Made by a program: the position numbers and the translations under genes. From Candidatus Freyrarchaeum guaymasense (lineage in GTDB: Archaea > Asgardarchaeota > Jordarchaeia > Jordarchaeales > Freyrarchaeaceae), in the NCBI GenBank assembly GCA_030587405.1, contig JAUQZD010000075.1:1-7403 (forward strand): a stretch of DNA of 7,403 nucleotides. Direction: 5' to 3'. Each line of letters starts with the position of its first letter. The first letter of the stretch is position 1. Positions 578 to 7,243 of this stretch are shown piece after piece. Below the pieces are notes generated by a model. That model saw nothing but the letters and a program-made list of their open reading frames with translations, ran no database searches and was not told where the DNA came from.

Positions 578-805
578 GGGTTCAGCTTACGTAGATATTG
601 GTAAGTCTATGTAGGTCTTGGTGTTCATTGGGTCGGTCTCCCTCTTGGGTTCATCGGGGACATGTCATAACCCTTACCCTCATTCGTGGCAACCCCACTC
701 CCCTCCTCATTTGCACCTTCCACGGAGGGATCATCCCAATCACCGCTCTGTAGAAGATCTTGGAGAGGGAGGAAAGCCACACATCCTTAGCGTGTTTTAA
801 GACCA

Positions 806-842
806 CCCCTTTCGGTGCTTCATTCTTCCACCACATCCGGGG
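806..842 (-). repeat. Hairpin A (two-part stem at the zinc-ribbon position)
   Basis: On the minus strand CCCC (842-839) can pair with GGGG (809-806), and inside it GGTG (832-829) pairs with CACC (817-814) around an 11-nt loop. The unit is 37 nt long. Equivalent 36-nt units with the same C-rich/G-rich outer stem and an inner stem occur at 5370-5405 and 7015-7050, at the same place relative to the TnpB zinc-ribbon codons. Confidence 0.55.
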
Positions 843-862
843 CAGGCCAAGTATGACATCCG

Positions 863-874
863 CCTATAAAATTT
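863..874 (-). promoter_or_regulatory. TATA-like box in front of hairpin A
   Basis: On the minus strand AAATTTTATAGG has the form of an archaeal TATA box. Its centre (about 868) is 26 nt before the first C of hairpin A at 842, which is the usual archaeal TATA-to-start distance. It would therefore start a transcript right at the hairpin. TATA-like sequences are frequent in AT-rich spacers, so this is only suggestive on its own. Confidence 0.4.
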
Positions 875-967
875 AACAGTTACGCAAGGCGACGCGGCCT
901 ACAAAAGAATGGTTAGTTTCCGGTTTCATCCATTATTTATATATTAATTTAAAAACCAACTTAACGA

Positions 968-1290: not shown

Positions 1291-2439
1291 TTGCCCTCCA
1301 GGCCTCATGGTGGCCGGCTCGTTAACAGACTAGCCTCCGAGAGCGTCCGCGAGAAAGTAGGCGGTGAACTCTCCGAGTTCGCGGCGGTCGCCGTCAGGGA
1401 AGGGGTAGCGTTCGACGTTGAAAACATAGCGTATGGCGTTTACAGCCCCCTTGAGGGATTCATGGTTGAGGAAGAGTTTCACTCGGTCTTAGACACGCTA
1501 CGCCTACCAGACGATTTACCCTGGGGTATCCCGATAGTCCTTGACGTCTCGGAGGAGGAAGCATCCAAGTTCGCCGAAGGCGACTCAATCCTCCTCACCC
1601 ACGGTGGAGCCCCCCTCGCCCTCCTGCACGTAGAGGACATCTATGGTTATGATAGGAGAGAGCTTGCATCCCGCGTCTTCGGAACAACGGATCCAAACCA
1701 TCCGGGAGTCGGCAAGGTTCAGGCGATGAACGCCATTCTAGTTGGCGGGAAAATAGACCTGATAGGTGAAGTAGCTAATCCCTTCGAAAGGCATACTCTC
1801 AGGCCGGTCGAAACCAGGGTTCTCTTCAGGGAGAGAGGGTGGAGGACGGTCGTCGGCTTCCAGACGAGGAACGTCCCCCATCTGGGGCACGAGTACCTTC
1901 AAAAGTCCGCTTTAGTGTTCGTTGACGGCCTCTTCATAAACCCGGTCATAGGGAGGAAGAAGAGAGGCGACTTCAGGGACGAAGTGATCCTAAAGGCATA
2001 CGACACGCTGATCGAAAACTACTACCCAAGGGACTCCGTGGCTCTGAGCATTGTCAGGTATGAAATGAGGTACGCGGGGCCAAGGGAAGCCCTGCATCAC
2101 GCCATCATGAGGAAGAACTTCGGGTGCACCCACTTCATAGTTGGAAGAGACCACGCTGGGGTTGGAAACTACTATAAGCCCTACGAAGCCCAGGAACTCC
2201 TCAAAGAGTTCCCCGACCTAGGCATAACCCCCCTCTTCTTCAAGGAGTTCTTTTACTGTAGAAAGTGTGGAGGAATGGTTAACAGCAGGGTTTGCCCCCA
2301 CGGGGAAAGCTACCGGGTAAAGTTCAGCGGAACGAAAATCAGAAAAATGTTCTTAGACGGGAAGACCCCTCCCCCCGAGCTCATGAGGCCGGAGGTATCC
2401 GAGGTGATCTTAAGCTTCGACAAGCCATTCGTAGAATAA
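1291..2439 (+). CDS. sat: Sulfate adenylyltransferase (ATP sulfurylase)
   Basis: This cytoplasmic enzyme makes adenylylsulfate (APS) and pyrophosphate from ATP and sulfate, or runs in reverse in sulfite oxidation. Family signatures are all present over 382 residues, the normal archaeal length: an N-terminal PHGGRLVNR block, GVYSPLEGFM (49-58), the nucleotide-binding QTRNVPHLGHEYLQ (191-204), GRDHAGVGNYY (285-295), a Cys cluster CRKC...C (323, 326, 335) typical of the zinc-binding archaeal/thermophile form, and FSGTKIRKM (345-353) with PPPELMRPEV after it. The TTG at 1291 is chosen because AGGTGA lies about six nt upstream and the product begins right at the conserved N-terminal block. It sits between the RHH-2 gene and a phosphodiesterase, with cysC downstream, so the forward activation direction is favoured. 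No frameshift or missing catalytic residue was seen. Confidence 0.97.
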   Translation: MPSRPHGGRLVNRLASESVREKVGGELSEFAAVAVREGVAFDVENIAYGVYSPLEGFMVEEEFHSVLDTLRLPDDLPWGIPIVLDVSEEEASKFAEGDSILLTHGGAPLALLHVEDIYGYDRRELASRVFGTTDPNHPGVGKVQAMNAILVGGKIDLIGEVANPFERHTLRPVETRVLFRERGWRTVVGFQTRNVPHLGHEYLQKSALVFVDGLFINPVIGRKKRGDFRDEVILKAYDTLIENYYPRDSVALSIVRYEMRYAGPREALHHAIMRKNFGCTHFIVGRDHAGVGNYYKPYEAQELLKEFPDLGITPLFFKEFFYCRKCGGMVNSRVCPHGESYRVKFSGTKIRKMFLDGKTPPPELMRPEVSEVILSFDKPFVE

Positions 2440-2464
2440 CCATTAGAAGGGAGGCATCTTAAAC

Positions 2465-3880
2465 GTGGAATATAAGGAAAGAAAGGTTTTGGTTGTCGGC
2501 CTTGACTCGGCTGCGCCGGACCTGGTCTTTGACCGGTTCAAAGACGAGCTTCCGAACCTGAAGCTGATGGCTGAGGAGGGAGTGTACGGCAGGCTTAGGT
2601 CGTGCCACCCTCCTATTACCATCCCTGCATGGATCACTATGGCTACGGGGGTTAACCCCGGCAAACTAGGCCTTTACGGCTTCAGGCACAGGAAGAACAA
2701 CTCTTACACTGAAATCTCGCTTCCCACCTCCCGCTCTGTTAAGGAAAGGAGGGTCTGGGATTACATCGGCGATGCAGGCCGGAAAGTGTGTGTGGTGGGT
2801 GTGCCACCAAGCTACCCGCCGCAAAGGGTTAACGGCTGGATGGTCTCGTGCATGATGACACCCAGCGCCAAATCACAGTACACCTATCCACGCGGCTTAA
2901 GGGACGAAGTCGAGAGAGTCGCGGGGGAATACGTGTTTGACGTCGCATTTAGAAAGGAAGATCGAGAGGGCGTTCTGAGGGACATATACGACATGACCGA
3001 GAAACACTTTAAGGTGGTCGAATACCTCATCGCCGAGAAGCCCTGGTCCTTCTTCATGTTCGTTGAGATAGGCTTGGACAGGATCCAACACGCTTTCTGG
3101 AGGTTCTTCGACGAGGAACACCACCTATACGAGCCAAGCAAGTTTAAGAACGTCGTCAAAGACTACTACAAATACTTAGATGAGAAAATCGGCAGGATCC
3201 TATCGATGATCGACGATGACACGGCTGTCCTCGTCGTCTCCGACCATGGAGCGAAAAGGATGAAGGGCGCCTTCTGCGTGAACGAGTGGCTGATTAGGGA
3301 GGGCTACCTGAAAGTTAAGGGGGGAAAAGCAACCAGAGGGGTAAACGACTGCGAACCTGGAGTCGCGGAGCCTGAGGAAGTAGACGTTGATTGGGAACAT
3401 ACCAAGGCTTGGGCTTGGGGCGGCTACTACGCAAGGGTTTTTATAAACTTAAGAGGGCGGGAGGAGAAAGGCGCCGTCAAACCCAGCGATTACGACAGGG
3501 TGAGAGATGAGCTGGCTGAAAAGCTGAAGGGGATCAGGGGGCCGAGAGGGGAGAAGTGGAACACTAGCGTTTACAAGCCGGAAGAACTATACCCCGTCTG
3601 CAACGGCTCCCCTCCAGACCTAATAGTGTACTTTGACGACTTATCTTGGAGGTCTGCTGGAACCATAGGGCATAAGACACTGTACTTGGCCGAGAACGAT
3701 AGGGGGCCCGACGACGCAGTCCACGACTACGATGGAGTGTTCATCCTCTACGATCCCCGAAGGAGTCTTGGAGGGCGCCGCGTCGCCGTCGACATCCTCG
3801 ACGTTGCCCCCACGATCCTAAAGCTGATGGGGTTGCCCGTCCCAGCCACTATGGAAGGAAGACCCGTGGAAGGAGTTTGA
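2465..3880 (+). CDS. Alkaline-phosphatase-superfamily protein, type I phosphodiesterase/nucleotide pyrophosphatase-like
   Basis: A 471-residue two-metal hydrolase of the phosphodiesterase/nucleotide pyrophosphatase branch. Seen in order: the metal Asp in VVGLDSAAPD (Asp14), the likely nucleophile Thr52 in PPITIPAWITMATG, GLDRIQHAFW (Asp205, His209), VVSDHGAKRM (Asp260, His261) and the late His419 in DAVHDYDGVF. The full metal set is therefore present. There is no signal peptide or membrane segment, so it probably acts in the cytoplasm. GTG 2465 has GGGAGG about ten nt upstream. It is placed between sat and cysC, and its stop codon touches the cysC ATG. That context suggests a substrate made by this pathway (APS, PAPS, PAP or a sulfated/phosphorylated metabolite), but the sequence does not tell phosphate-ester from sulfate-ester hydrolysis. 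It ends at EGRPVEGV, without the long acidic tail many relatives carry. Confidence 0.88.
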   Translation: MEYKERKVLVVGLDSAAPDLVFDRFKDELPNLKLMAEEGVYGRLRSCHPPITIPAWITMATGVNPGKLGLYGFRHRKNNSYTEISLPTSRSVKERRVWDYIGDAGRKVCVVGVPPSYPPQRVNGWMVSCMMTPSAKSQYTYPRGLRDEVERVAGEYVFDVAFRKEDREGVLRDIYDMTEKHFKVVEYLIAEKPWSFFMFVEIGLDRIQHAFWRFFDEEHHLYEPSKFKNVVKDYYKYLDEKIGRILSMIDDDTAVLVVSDHGAKRMKGAFCVNEWLIREGYLKVKGGKATRGVNDCEPGVAEPEEVDVDWEHTKAWAWGGYYARVFINLRGREEKGAVKPSDYDRVRDELAEKLKGIRGPRGEKWNTSVYKPEELYPVCNGSPPDLIVYFDDLSWRSAGTIGHKTLYLAENDRGPDDAVHDYDGVFILYDPRRSLGGRRVAVDILDVAPTILKLMGLPVPATMEGRPVEGV

Positions 3881-4405
3881 ATGTCCGGAGTAGTCGTCTG
3901 GCTGACAGGGTTGCCAGGGTCCGGGAAAACCACTCTTGCAAGATCCTTGGAAAGGGAGCTGAGGGAGAAAGGGGTTAAAGTCGAGGTCTTAGACGGGGAC
4001 GACGTTAGAAAGTGGCTTAGCCCGGAGGCAGGATTCAGCAGAGAGGATAGGGAACGCCACCTAAAACGCGTAGCCCACGTTTCAAGGCTCCTAGCAAGAA
4101 ACGGCGTCACGGTCATCGCATCCTTCGTATCCCCCTACCGGCACGTGAGAAGAGAGGTTAGGCGGATCATCGAGGAGGAAGGACTAAGGTTCATAGAGGT
4201 CTACGTCAAGTGCAGCCTGGAAACTTGCCTAAAAAGGGATCCTAAAGGACTCTACAAGAAAGCTCTTAAAGGCGAGGTTAAGGACATGACTGGGGTACAG
4301 GACGCCTACGAGGAGCCGCTAAACCCGGATGTGGTGGTTGACACCGAGAGGGAAGGAGTTAGCGAATGCACACGGAAAATCCTCGACTACATCCCAACGG
4401 AATAA
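3881..4405 (+). CDS. cysC: Adenylylsulfate (APS) kinase
   Basis: It phosphorylates APS at the 3' position with ATP, giving PAPS, the activated sulfate donor. The 174-residue chain is a standard single-domain APS kinase: Walker A GLPGSGKTT (10-18), LDGDDVR (38-43), the helical GFSREDRERHLKRV segment, FVSPYR (82-87), VKCSLETCLKRDPKGLY (109-124) and the closing MTGVQDAYEEPLNPD (136-150). It begins at the base after the stop codon of the phosphodiesterase gene, indicating translational coupling; the family P-loop starts eight residues in, so the start is secure. With sat it completes the two-step activation. No PAPS reductase or sulfotransferase is visible nearby, so the fate of PAPS (sulfation or reduction) is open. 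Confidence 0.96.
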   Translation: MSGVVVWLTGLPGSGKTTLARSLERELREKGVKVEVLDGDDVRKWLSPEAGFSREDRERHLKRVAHVSRLLARNGVTVIASFVSPYRHVRREVRRIIEEEGLRFIEVYVKCSLETCLKRDPKGLYKKALKGEVKDMTGVQDAYEEPLNPDVVVDTEREGVSECTRKILDYIPTE

Positions 4406-5201: not shown

Positions 5202-5332
5202 GGAGCCTCCACGCTTAAGCAAAACAGGAGAGCGGAGTCCTCACTCATCACCCTAAACCCACCTCTCCCGGCTAGCCTTGCGAAGCAGTAACATTTTTCA
5301 TAGGCATTGATAGGCGCTCTGCGGCCGCAACA
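5202..5332. other. Operon tail / intergenic spacer
   Basis: I see no gene here. A run of five T (5294-5298) about 90 nt after the transporter stop could serve as an archaeal T-run terminator for the operon, but it is short. No tRNA, box C/D or box H/ACA pattern was found on either strand. Confidence 0.35.
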
Positions 5333-5340
5333 CATTTATA
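5333..5340 (+). promoter_or_regulatory. TATA-like box in front of element B
   Basis: CATTTATA at 5333-5340 fits an archaeal TATA box; a start about 25 nt downstream falls near 5362, eight nt before hairpin B. Element A has a TATA-like box in the same position relative to its hairpin. Element C, where the same sequence lies inside tnpB, has no equally good match there. Confidence 0.45.
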
Positions 5341-5500
5341 CCTCTCCTTCCAGACATGCTTAATCGGAGCCCCGTCTGCTCAGGCAGCCTGGCTGCCTAT
5401 CGGGGCAAGCACCTTCGGATGTGGGGCTCCCGGGGTTACCCCGAAAGGGGACGAGCCCCTGAAGGATAAAACCTTCAAGGGTGATGCGTCCCAAAGCGGA
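5341..5500 (+). mobile_element. Element B: internally deleted tnpB 3'-end derivative
   Basis: One frame (5368-5469) reads SPVCSGSLAAYRGK, then HLRMWGSRGYPERGR, ending at TAA. The first part matches the zinc-ribbon start of TnpB in element C (CPVCQATMVAYRGR) and the second its C-terminal LRVWGSG; about 20 residues containing the second Cys pair and DRD are absent at the junction. The flank TTCCAGACATGC (5348-5359) resembles TTCCAGGACATGC before the ribbon in C. At DNA level both copies share CCCCGTCTG, GCCTATCGGGGCA and CCTTCGG.TGTGGGGCTCC, and later a GATG...AAA.CG motif. The right boundary is uncertain because it merges near 5480-5505 into an antisense HEPN gene fragment. No start codon or ribosome-binding site is seen, so it is not a protein gene now. 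Confidence 0.65.
5362..5500 (+). ncRNA. Candidate structured RNA, free-standing omega-RNA-like
   Basis: Three strong hairpins follow one another after a TATA box. Hairpin 1 is 5370-5405: outer CCCCG/CGGGG and inner GGCAGCC/GGCTGCC. Hairpin 2 is 5423-5459: GGGGCTC/GAGCCCC enclosing CGGGGTTACCCCG. Hairpin 3 is 5460-5477: TGAAGG/CCTTCA with a six-nt loop. In TnpB systems the omega-RNA (guide RNA scaffold) is transcribed from the 3' end of tnpB and the element end, which is exactly the part kept here. Hairpin 1 is equivalent to 7015-7050 of element C with two compensatory base-pair changes (A-T to T-A, G-C to A-T). That is evidence for selection on structure, although only a few sequences are compared. 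Whether it is transcribed, and where it ends, cannot be seen. It may instead be a decaying miniature element. Confidence 0.45.
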
Positions 5501-5686
5501 CATACGTCTAAAAGACTATATCCGCTGAACCCCTCGTTCAAACTGTAAAGAAGAGCCTTCACAGCCTTCTCAGCCGCCTGATGAGAATAGAAAACAGCAG
5601 CGTTAAACCTCCCTCCCTATGGAGGATCTCAGCCGTCCCTAAATCCACAACGCCTCGCTAAACCACCTCTCAGCCTCACCCCGCAC
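5500..5686 (-). pseudogene. Broken HEPN-domain protein gene
   Basis: On the minus strand the segment from about 5620 to 5500 encodes RFNAAVFYSHQAAEKAVKA and then LLYSLNEGFSGYSLLDV. This is the typical central helix of archaeal HEPN (PF05168-type) proteins (HQAAEKAlKALL, then a G.SLL motif). Upstream, a second frame from a possible GTG at 5686 gives VRGEAERWFSEALWI, the usual HEPN N-terminus, interrupted by TAG at 5641-5639. A third stretch (TAEILHREG, about 5634-5607) links the two, so there is at least one stop and one or two frameshifts. The C-terminal half is missing: the homology stops where element B begins, so that element or an associated deletion removed it. HEPN proteins are usually paired with a nucleotidyltransferase (MNT) as toxin-antitoxin units; no MNT gene was recognised next to it. 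Confidence 0.72.
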
Positions 5687-5845
5687 TCCAATCACCCACC
5701 CACTCAACCACCCTAAACACTAAAATCGCCCACGTATTAAGTCTGCCCAAGCCATCACCATCCACCATCAAATGGGAAACAGCAAAAGCACCGCACCCCT
5801 CCTCCTAATAGAACACCGAAGCCTTGTGTAGCTGTTGCTTTTTAG
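5687..5845. other. Spacer between the HEPN remnant and element C
   Basis: I see no recognisable gene. The strand is C-rich and the minus strand has a frame of moderate length without a known motif. An MNT nucleotidyltransferase partner for the HEPN fragment was looked for on the minus strand (GSRARG-type motif) and not found. Confidence 0.35.
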
Positions 5846-5847
5846 AT

Positions 5848-5857
5848 AAGTTTATAT
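5848..5857 (+). promoter_or_regulatory. TATA box of the IS607-like element
   Basis: AGTTTATATG lies about 38 nt before the HTH gene start at 5891, placing a transcript start near 5876-5880 and leaving a very short leader that holds the GGTGG ribosome-binding site. Confidence 0.5.
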
Positions 5858-5890
5858 GTTTGTTTGCTTGTTTTGGTGTTTGTGGTGGAT

Positions 5891-6097
5891 ATGGATAGAA
5901 GGGAGAGGATGCTGAGGAGCGGCGAGGTAGCCAAGATCCTCGGAGTCGATAGGCACACCGTTGTTAAGTGGGTCAAGGAGGGCTGGATCAGAGCCATTAG
6001 GCTCCCAAGCGGAAGGTACAGGATCCCGGAGAGCGAGGTGAAAAAGATACTTGAAGGAGGAAGCAACCGCAACCGCAACCGCAACCAAAGCATATAA
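5891..6097 (+). CDS. HTH-only remnant of IS607-type TnpA (MerR/excisionase-like DNA-binding domain)
   Basis: A 68-residue protein. Residues 9-54 form the N-terminal winged-HTH of IS607 serine transposases: SGEVAKILGVDRHTVVKWVK, then the wing IRLPSGRYRIPESEV. Full TnpA has about 130-150 more residues with the serine-recombinase domain; here the frame ends in SNRNRNRNQSI and TAA. Start: the ATG at 5891 has GGTGG five nt before it; the in-frame start at 5864 has none. The frame itself is intact, and its end overlaps the TnpB start by 47 nt. It may still bind the element ends or its own promoter as a repressor, but cannot catalyse transposition. Either an internal deletion removed the catalytic part, or this is a standing HTH-plus-TnpB architecture; the tandem repeat at the junction hints at the former. 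Confidence 0.78.
   Translation: MDRRERMLRSGEVAKILGVDRHTVVKWVKEGWIRAIRLPSGRYRIPESEVKKILEGGSNRNRNRNQSI
6062..6085 (+). repeat. Tandem hexamer, four copies of GCAACC
   Basis: Four perfect GCAACC units lie inside the overlap of the two element genes. They read as Asn-Arg repeats in the HTH frame and Ala-Thr repeats in the TnpB frame. Whole hexamers can be gained or lost without shifting either frame. The position coincides with where the TnpA catalytic domain is missing. Confidence 0.9.
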
Positions 6098-7014
6098 AGT
6101 TCCAGTAGAAGCCCCAAAAGATCTAATAGAAGCATACTTCGAAGCCAAGAAGAAAGCACTAGAAGAGGTTCTGAGCCACATCACCCACCACCGAACCGGA
6201 AAGGCCCACCTAAAACTCAAAGCCGGGGACAGGGGGAGGCTGAGGAACAACCTCCTAAAGGACTGGAAGTACTCTAGGTACTACGTCGGCTCAGCCATAG
6301 GACTGGTTAAGGGGTGGACTAGGCTCCACAACAGGGGGAGGGCGAAATCCAAACCCAAAGTAGCGGGGAAAACGGTCTACATAAAATCAACGCTGTTCAC
6401 GTATAGGGATGGAAAACTAAAAATCAGCATCGAACCGGGTAAACGGATACTTGGAAGTAAACCTAGCAAGGTATGATTACCTGCCAAGGGACTTCGACGC
6501 CATCGGCGGACTACTGACAGAAAACAGGCTCATAGTCAACTTCAAGAAAAAGTGGAAAGCGTCAATCCCAGAGATTGGGCTTCGTTCGACGTGAACCTGG
6601 CCAACGTGACCGCCCTGACCAACGGGGGAGTGGTCAGGTATGACCTCAGGCAGCTGTACCACGTCCACAGGGTCTACGAGGAGAAGAGGAGAAGAATACA
6701 AAAGCTATCTAAACGTAAGCCCAGGACGGCTGGGAGGCTGATGCGGAAGTACTCCAGGAGGGAAAAGGATAGGGCTAGGGACTTCATGCATAAGCTGACG
6801 GCTAGGATAGCCGGGGAGCTGGAGGAGCTGCGTAGCGGGCGGTGCTCGAGGGCCTGGAGGGCGTTAAGGGCAGGGTTCTACACCGGGGCAAAGGAATCAG
6901 CCGCAGGCTCTCGAAGTGGAACGCAAGAACATTCCAGCTCATGCTCAAATACAAGCTGAAATGGGCTGGGCTACCGGTCAGGCACGTTAACCCATCCTAT
7001 TCTTCCAGGACATG

Positions 7015-7243
7015 CCCCGTCTGTCAGGCTACCATGGTAGCCTATCGGGGCAGATTGATGAGGCGTTAGTGCGGGTGTGGGGTCGTTCTTGATAGGGATG
7101 TTGCTGCTGTCCTGAACCTTCGGGTGTGGGGCTCCGGTACCCCGAATGCTCCATCAGGGCTTGGCCCGATGACGGGGAAACGCCTGACAGACCAAAACCA
7201 CATTACCCATAAAAACCTATCAAGCGTGAACCCCCACGGCTAA
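7015..7243 (+). ncRNA. Predicted omega-RNA region at the 3' end of tnpB
   Basis: By the known biology of TnpB, the guide-scaffold RNA comes from the last part of tnpB and the element end. Here that part holds a hairpin at 7015-7050 (outer CCCCG/CGGGG, inner 16-bp perfect palindrome GGCTACCATGGTAGCC at 7027-7042). It is followed by GGGGCTCCGGTACCCC, by GGGC/GCCC around TTG (7157-7167), and by the right-end motif GTGAACCCCCACGGC. Elements A and B keep equivalents of the first hairpin and of the segment after it. The exact 5' and 3' ends of such an RNA are unknown here. Confidence 0.45.

What the first reader, a model, noticed from the sequence alone, without database searches (positions are those of the whole stretch)
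5333..5500. Protein-less omega-RNA-like locus with its own promoter
Element B keeps only the tnpB 3' part that makes guide-scaffold RNA. It carries three consecutive hairpins, has no start codon, and has a TATA box placed to start transcription just before hairpin 1. If expressed it could guide a TnpB acting in trans from elsewhere in the genome, or act as a decoy or regulator. Seen directly: hairpins, TATA-like box, residual zinc-ribbon codons. Inferred: expression and partnership.
Basis: partly seen in the sequence, partly recalled or inferred. Interest (0 to 1): 0.75.

Follow-up and report, generated by a model that had tools for sequence, protein, structure and literature searches.

The report
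Miniature transposon carrying only guide RNA
A 258-base mobile element in an archaeon appears to have kept the promoter and guide-RNA part of a jumping gene but lost both of its proteins, so it probably borrows the cutting enzyme of its larger relatives to stay in the genome.

Summary
B is a 258-nt miniature element (5275-5532) with an IS607-type left end, a TATA box, an omega-RNA-like scaffold and an IS607-type right end. A 95% identical copy lies in another genome between other genes. B is not unique. Genome G355 has 10 related tnpB-less copies, each with a different 3' flank, beside intact TnpB frames with a cognate RNA end. B-like solos have lost most of the coding stretch between hairpins 1 and 2 (starts 40-54 nt apart against about 97-102), apparently in several lineages. 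The window holds a second such element, C (578-890, minus). Best reading: a non-autonomous IS607 derivative using TnpA and TnpB in trans, its guide being its own right flank. Transcription and partnership are inferred. Miniature IS607-related elements are known in archaea, and guides in trans from broken loci have been suggested in print; guide-RNA-only miniature elements were not found in my searches. New variant of a known kind.

The parts
5275..5532 (+). Element B: tnpB-less miniature IS607-type element encoding an omegaRNA-like scaffold
   Evidence: 95% identical 261-column match in G527, limited to 5275-5532, between other genes
5275..5289 (+). Left end GCCTTGCGAAGCAGT
   Evidence: With at most 1 mismatch the motif GCCTTGYGNAGCNGT (written from the A and B ends) occurs 3 times in the window, at the left ends of A, B and C; the other 3 listed matches have 3 mismatches
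5335..5340 (+). TATA box (TTTATA), start expected a few nt before hairpin 1
   Evidence: 34 nt upstream of hairpin 1. Of 12 solos scanned, 8 have a similar box starting 28-44 nt upstream, 3 do not by that scan, 1 was mis-anchored; not tested experimentally
5369..5406 (+). Hairpin 1, in codons of the first zinc knuckle
   Evidence: Lower stem 96.7% paired over 26 chosen sequences, 24 double-changed cells, 0 of 500 shuffles reach the covariation score
5407..5412 (+). Junction where the second zinc-knuckle codons are missing
   Evidence: Hairpin 1 to hairpin 2 starts: 42 nt here, 97-99 in six tnpB-type copies, about 102 in A
5423..5459 (+). Stem 5423-5428/5454-5459 enclosing the GGGGTTACCCC hairpin (5431-5443)
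   Evidence: 89-90% of cells paired over 8 sequences, no double changes, so weak evidence
5448..5492 (+). Helix 5448-5452 with 5488-5492, crossing the stem above
   Evidence: 95% paired, one pair with double changes (G-C to A-U)
5460..5477 (+). Variable middle hairpin
   Evidence: Double changes at two pairs; three of its four pairs have letters in only 3 of 8 sequences
5495..5526 (+).
   Evidence: z -5.2; 5 of 9 pairs with double changes
5528..5532 (+). Right-end AACCC, proposed pseudoknot with GGGTT 5433-5437
   Evidence: Exact 5-mer complement at -125..-85 in 50 of 95 related ends, shuffled mean 6.2, largest 14 (selection by the model may inflate it); two TnpB ends of G200 found through Pfam have CCGTTC/GAACGG
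5533..5548 (+). Putative guide: flanking DNA, not part of the element
   Evidence: By analogy with IS607 reRNAs (PMC10711439, section read); the flanks differ after the fixed end in 10 of 10 G355 solos
578..890 (-). Element C: second tnpB-less miniature element, another RNA subtype
   Evidence: Left end at 890-876, RNA model hit 691-578; 15-20 nt between two matched blocks where copies that keep the coding stretch have 66-74 nt
5821..7233 (+). Element A: IS607-type element with HTH-only TnpA remnant (5891-6097) and broken tnpB
   Evidence: Pfam HTH_17/MerR, OrfB_IS605 and Cas12f1-like_TNB on separate open frames, stops and frame changes, model hit 7116-7233

Best explanation
B is a non-autonomous miniature derivative of an IS607 element. 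Internal deletion removed tnpA, most of tnpB and most of the stretch between hairpins 1 and 2, leaving left end, promoter, hairpin 1, omegaRNA core and right end. A transcript started at the TATA box would begin at about hairpin 1, run through the scaffold and continue past the right end into flanking DNA, which serves as guide. A TnpB of a related autonomous element would bind this RNA in trans and cut chromosomes that have lost B, so that repair restores it, while TnpA in trans moves B. Shown: ends, a second insertion site, compensated scaffold, recurrent spacer loss, coexistence of similar solos with open TnpA and TnpB frames in other genomes. Inferred: transcription, TnpB binding, cutting, retention.
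For: Mobility: a 95% identical copy with other flanks. Multi-copy relatives: 10 RNA-bearing solos in G355, two of them cut at a contig start, each with another 3' flank after AGAACCC. RNA selection; among 11 solos alone 61 of 62 hairpin-1 lower-stem cells pair, with four pair types at the innermost pair. Spacer loss: of 44 loci with hairpin 1 within reach of hairpin 2, 14 tnpB-less lie at 40-58 nt, 29 that keep the coding stretch at 98-105, one degenerate at 73-74, in that call's measure (G355 gives 8 of the 14 and 19 of the 29). In hairpin 1, 9 of 11 solos (G200, G474, G002, G310, G355) are closer to a tnpB-type copy than to any solo of another genome. Partners: G200 has an open 395-aa TnpB frame with a B-type RNA; in G355, 11 open 386-aa TnpB frames end where a solo query matches the 3' half; resolvase-type TnpA in G355, G200, G527 and G002. 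B keeps the common letters at four paired or proposed-paired scaffold sites that differ in the G527 copy.
Against: No transcript data. The window's genome is not held, so a TnpB partner there is untested, and A's tnpB is broken. In G527 the tnpB with the closest right end is interrupted. G310 and G474 carry solos, but no resolvase-type TnpA was found there. In the G527 copy four of eight scaffold changes hit paired or proposed-paired positions without compensation, so that copy may be dead. Hairpin 1 lies outside the minimal scaffold needed in ISDra2 (PMC10097598), so its role is unclear. B and G527 are nearest each other, so they are probably one origin. Pair types that differ between solos may come from different tnpB ancestors rather than from change after the loss. 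Two of five measures do not exceed shuffles: pairs with double change in hairpin 1 (3 against 2.5, 264 of 500) and further pair types in the 3' part (13 against 12.5, 259 of 500). The TATA box is not found at this place in 3 of 12 solos scanned. Of the 8 G355 solos with upstream DNA, one has its left-end region inverted and one no recognisable left end.
Confidence: 0.6

Rival explanations
1. B is only a miniature IS607 element moved by TnpA. The RNA structure is a fossil of the parental tnpB 3' end and does nothing now.
For: Such deletion derivatives need only ends; the G527 copy has uncompensated changes in stems; no expression data; element A is also decayed; one copy in G002 has hairpin 2 to right end without hairpin 1 (L099); nine G227 copies also lack hairpin 1.
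Against: Several lineages kept hairpin 1 and the core while losing the coding stretch between them; 61 of 62 lower-stem cells pair in solos; a TATA box sits at a similar distance in 8 of 12 solos scanned.
Confidence: 0.27
2. The RNA is a competitor or decoy that occupies TnpB of autonomous elements and lowers their guide loading, or a regulator of host genes.
For: A scaffold with a fixed core and a different 3' end could titrate TnpB; PMC13418256 (passages) describes nuclease-dead TnpB relatives as RNA-guided repressors and says a broken tldR locus may still give gRNAs in trans.
Against: Each of 10 G355 solos carries its own insertion flank as 3' extension, as for self-targeting guides. The 16-nt guides of A, B and C have no second match with 0 or 1 mismatch in the 1.78 Mb held, four with 2 mismatches; this is a small and biased sample.
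Confidence: 0.1
3. The inverted repeats are DNA sites for TnpA or replication, not RNA.
For: Transposon ends often contain palindromes (general knowledge).
Against: Hairpin 1 ends 126 nt from the right end and lies inside tnpB codons of autonomous copies, where paired bases in two zinc-ribbon codon regions change together; the order of parts follows the omegaRNA of ISDra2.
Confidence: 0.03

Closest known systems
omegaRNA/reRNA of TnpB (ISDra2, PMC10097598; ISXfa1, PMC10711439)
   Same: Derived from the tnpB 3' end and right end, core of about 120 nt, helix at about -85/-45 near ISDra2 stem 2 (-84/-35), proposed pseudoknot between the last nt and about -100 (ISDra2 -5..-3 with -105..-103), guide from the right flank, fixed flanking base counted as scaffold in IS607
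   Different: No tnpB in cis, TATA box next to the RNA, coding stretch lost, an added hairpin 1 outside the ISDra2 minimal scaffold
IS607-related miniature elements of Staphylothermus marinus (14 copies, about 260 nt; PMC2678158, passages)
   Same: Archaeal, similar length, attributed to IS607 elements
   Different: Described with inverted repeats and likeness to DNA upstream of the transposase genes; no guide RNA in the passages seen; I did not fetch those sequences
Frameshifted tldR locus that may give gRNAs in trans (PMC13418256, passage)
   Same: Idea of a guide supplied without its protein
   Different: Broken tldR gene beside csrA in a bacterium, not a miniature mobile element
Stand-alone IscB omegaRNAs (Altae-Tran 2021; recalled, not read here)
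   Same: omegaRNA loci away from their protein gene
   Different: IscB rather than TnpB; details recalled only
MITE-derived sRNAs (QMITE1/2, PMC5896051, passages)
   Same: Small RNAs arising from miniature elements
   Different: Another element; no RNA-guided nuclease in the passages seen

Membership tests
IS607-family element (non-autonomous) | Ends shared with an IS607 element that encodes TnpA and TnpB | tested here: met
   Left-end motif shared with A and C; the G527 element with an open TnpA frame and a broken tnpB has left end GTCTTGCGAAACTGTT and a very similar last 50 nt (74% over 121 columns)
IS607-family element (non-autonomous) | Inserted copies at different sites | tested here: met
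   Window and G527; related solos 10 copies in G355
IS607-family element (non-autonomous) | TnpA available in trans in the same genome | tested here: inconclusive
   PF00239 matches in G355 12, G527 7, G002 5, G200 3, G310 0, G474 0; the window's genome is not held
MITE in the strict sense | Terminal inverted repeats | tested here: not met
   By reading: ends are GCCTTGCGAAGC... and ...GCTGAACCC, no inverted repeat; IS607 elements lack them too (PMC6188088, abstract start in listing)
TnpB omegaRNA/reRNA | Structured RNA with conserved pairing, derived from tnpB 3' end | tested here: met
TnpB omegaRNA/reRNA | Pseudoknot next to the guide | tested here: inconclusive
   Complement present, little varied within B-type copies; CCGTTC/GAACGG in two G200 ends, no formal count
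TnpB omegaRNA/reRNA | Fixed right end followed by a variable guide | tested here: met
   10 of 10 G355 solos; for B itself two copies, window and G527
TnpB omegaRNA/reRNA | Transcribed, bound by TnpB, directs cleavage | not testable with these tools
   No RNA data, no biochemistry
Rfam families | Match to any curated RNA family | tested here: not met
   Only an irrelevant E 0.91 match in the window

The most novel reading that the evidence does not exclude
Thermophilic archaea carry a widespread, repeatedly arising class of selfish elements whose main product is a guide RNA: ends, a promoter and an omegaRNA, parasitising both TnpA and TnpB of autonomous IS607 relatives, stripped of coding sequence between RNA modules, and able to move between distant archaeal lineages.
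Probability: 0.45. Interest if true: 0.8.

Novelty: new variant of a known kind. Interest (0 to 1): 0.62.

Why it matters
If true, TnpB acts on guides it does not encode, so parasites of RNA-guided nucleases arise by simple deletion, a possible model of how guide and nuclease became separate genes on the way to CRISPR-like systems. The short natural solos also show which parts of a long archaeal omegaRNA can be dropped, and make the question 'does TnpB work in trans in nature' directly testable with genomes such as G355 and G200.

Tried and rejected
The window's own genome is not held, so its TnpB repertoire could not be searched. A viral-contig scan with the neighbouring phosphodiesterase found no relative. 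A match of the solo pattern in G204 looks like chance: it does not resemble hairpin 1, and the reversed control pattern also hit once in 398 genomes. A first regex for right-end modules was too strict and was dropped. The ten-sequence alignment A3 was not used for pair counts, because one row was badly gapped. An ISDra2-like stem 1 in B was considered and not claimed; by eye the pairing is not kept across types. In the TATA scan G002 and G474 showed no box near hairpin 1, G200a only one at -13, and the G200d anchor fell on another site; a TTAAATATT is visible upstream of G200d. The empty-site comparison with Baldrarchaeum is weak, because the gene after tauE differs from the window's.

Alignment A1 (26 rows) and A2 (8 rows, 5 of them from G002) were chosen by me from the loci held, not all of them. 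Searches capped the candidates scored per genome (2 or 5 for B for C, 40 for G355), so counts are lower bounds.

Census limits: one search scored at most 9 candidates per genome; 105 places were listed in 39 of 398 genomes, two of which were in the model's training set. Sequence was at hand for 97 of 105, and 78 of 97 had at least 1000 nt upstream. Of these 78: 28 follow at least 250 aa of TnpB-like sequence, 7 follow 110-249 aa, 19 a remnant under 110 aa, 24 none (25 reference frames, some partial; tblastn). Some remnants are N-terminal pieces or belong to a neighbour. The 8 places without sequence and the 19 with short upstream DNA were not classified. Weak model hits (for example in G543 and G310:C1:438658, E up to 1e-3) are counted but may be chance or decay. 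Not all tnpB-less places are B-like: the G227 copies lack hairpin 1.

Full report
Setting. The window looks archaeal. It holds two small genes (359-577, no Pfam match; 1028-1279, RelB/RHH_1 matches below their cut-offs), sat, a type I phosphodiesterase, apsK and a TauE-type permease, then element B, then an IS607-type element A. The run from the second small gene through tauE is found in the same order in Candidatus Baldrarchaeum yapensis (L002; Promethearchaeati) at 70-76% protein identity, TauE at 38%. There a relative of the first small gene follows tauE directly, with no element between. No whole genome is held for the window.

What B is. B shares 95% identity over 261 columns with a copy in genome G527, and the match stops at 5275 and 5532. 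In the 14 kb held around it nothing else matches the window except the right end of a nearby IS607 element, and the copy lies between a membrane-protein ORF and a nucleotidyltransferase-like ORF (my reading of the translations). So the element has been inserted at two sites. G527 does not look like a close relative: its best match to the window's TauE is 31% over 89 residues, one gene only; it was drawn from the phylum of G001, the genome of the Aigarchaeota contig L001. Transfer between lineages is possible, with binning error as a caveat. The left end recurs with at most one mismatch only at the starts of A and C.

Structure. The unit carries hairpin 1 (5369-5406), a stem enclosing a GGGGTTACCCC hairpin, a helix 5448-5452/5488-5492, a variable middle hairpin and a terminal hairpin 5495-5526. 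Hairpin 1's lower stem was counted on 26 sequences (11 solos): 96.7% of cells pair, 24 cells carry double changes, and no shuffle of 500 reaches the covariation score; partners slid by 1-3 columns fall to 59% or less. The number of pairs with a double change (3) is not above the shuffles. The 3' part was counted on 8 B-type sequences: 89.3% paired, 8 pairs with double changes (5 of 500 shuffles reach that), covariation 0.180 against 0.104 (0 of 500); the number of further pair types is not above the shuffles. Shuffles do not keep relatedness; the slid control keeps it and also falls well below. A covariance model from those 8 sequences finds A and C, which were not in it, at E 1.9e-5 and 3.9e-5; the next matches are chance-like at 0.36 and 0.89.

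Likeness to omegaRNA. Counting back from the right end (5532 = -1), B's core has a helix at -85..-81/-45..-41, a middle hairpin at -73..-56, a terminal hairpin at -38..-7 and a possible pseudoknot -5..-1 with -100..-96. The ISDra2 structure has stem 2 at -84..-81/-35..-32 and a pseudoknot -5..-3/-105..-103 in a 116-nt scaffold (PMC10097598, section read). In the IS607 element ISXfa1 the fixed flanking base is part of the scaffold and the guide follows (PMC10711439, section read). Hairpin 1 lies outside the ISDra2 minimal scaffold; its conservation here is unexplained.

Solos elsewhere. BLAST with B found matches in 2 of 148 genomes of the Baldrarchaeum phylum and in 14 of 398 of the G001 phylum. 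A pattern for the short spacing hit 5 of 398 genomes (one probably chance), seven times in G355; it missed the G527 copy. In G355 a search with one solo gave 45 matches: 10 copies with the RNA part, two 102-nt fragments at contig ends, and shorter matches, mostly to the 3' half. I read 18 of these; all 18 have the long spacing of tnpB-type copies (15, three more). Each of the 10 solos is followed by a different flank; one of them carries the terminal stem of the tnpB-linked type. G355 has 63 PF07282 matches, and 11 open 386-aa frames end where the solo query matches.

Recurrent spacer loss. From the start of hairpin 1 to the start of hairpin 2 the distance is 42 nt in B, 41 G527, 40 G310, 50 G002, 46 G200, 44 G474, 51 and 54 G355, against 97-99 in six tnpB-type copies and 71 in one degenerate copy. 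Over the loci then held, 14 tnpB-less loci fall at 40-58, 29 at 98-105, one at 73-74 (a measure about 2 nt longer, blind beyond 130 nt). In hairpin 1, 9 of 11 solos are nearer to a tnpB-type copy than to solos of other genomes; B and G527 are nearest each other. The simplest reading is several independent deletions that kept both RNA modules and dropped codons that autonomous copies must keep.

A second solo in the window. Element C (578-890, minus) has a left end whose TTAAATTTTATA can serve as TATA box, its own hairpin 1 and right end. Between the two matched blocks C has 15-20 nt where L153, L130 and L232 have 66-74 (L214: 7 against 60). G200 has two loci that match C in one piece across this place. 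G527 has a C-type element with an open TnpA frame of 204 aa, an open TnpB frame of 457 aa and an RNA part 82% identical to C.

Census. The model matched 39 of 398 genomes; among 78 classifiable places 43 had no TnpB or under 110 aa of it, in 16 genomes. This includes weak matches and other RNA types, but tnpB-less copies are not rare.

Mechanism. IS607 TnpB with a reRNA guided by the right flank would cut the empty site. A solo with intact ends and RNA, in a cell with TnpA and TnpB, could be moved by the one and kept by the other. Coexistence of solos with open partner frames is seen in G355 and G200; in G527 the tnpB with the closest right end is interrupted, and in the window partners are unknown. 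The G527 copy of B shows four uncompensated changes at paired or proposed-paired sites, at which B keeps the common letters. So B looks like the sounder copy, and the class contains dead members.

Literature. Searches in the held library (open-licence PMC papers only) listed no paper on guide-RNA-only miniature elements, as judged from listings and the passages read. Term look-ups in PMC11061315, PMC8612924 and the MITE review PMC10969869 found nothing on such elements. Related: S. marinus elements of about 260 nt tied to IS607 (PMC2678158, passages), a remark on gRNAs in trans (PMC13418256, passage), circular archaeal omegaRNAs (PMC12558985, abstract start and two passages). The 2021 paper on stand-alone IscB omegaRNAs is recalled, not read.

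Verdict. Observation confirmed and extended; interpretation partly supported; new variant of a known kind, interest 0.62. Confidence values are unchanged after the fact check.

Noticed in passing
window 578-890, minus strand: Element C, a second tnpB-less miniature IS607-type element of another RNA subtype; its right end abuts the stop codon of the small gene 359-577.
   Followed up: yes
window 5821-7233: Element A keeps only the HTH part of TnpA (5891-6097, ending in an Asn-Arg repeat) and a broken tnpB; its GGGGTT strand, seen in the related L103, is shortened to GGT.
   Followed up: partly
L219, L259, L281-L284, L286, L294, L297 (genome G227): Nine copies of another right half ending in CAGAACCC, seven with a shared left half, without hairpin 1; the seven with at least 1000 nt held upstream show no TnpB.
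   Followed up: partly
alignment A1 (hairpin 1 in tnpB codons): In tnpB, bases of the Pro codon and the next codon change together with the codon after Tyr (for example GTC with CGG or CTG, CTC with GAG, GGG or GCG), as if RNA pairing constrained two zinc-ribbon residues.
   Followed up: partly
window 1330-4405: A phosphodiesterase/nucleotide pyrophosphatase gene sits between sat and apsK here and in several archaeal and Aminicenantes loci, suggesting an unnamed part of sulfate activation.
   Followed up: no
genome G355: 63 PF07282 (TnpB) matches and 12 resolvase-type TnpA matches in a genome of about 1.8 Mb, with several kinds of TnpB 3' end.
   Followed up: partly
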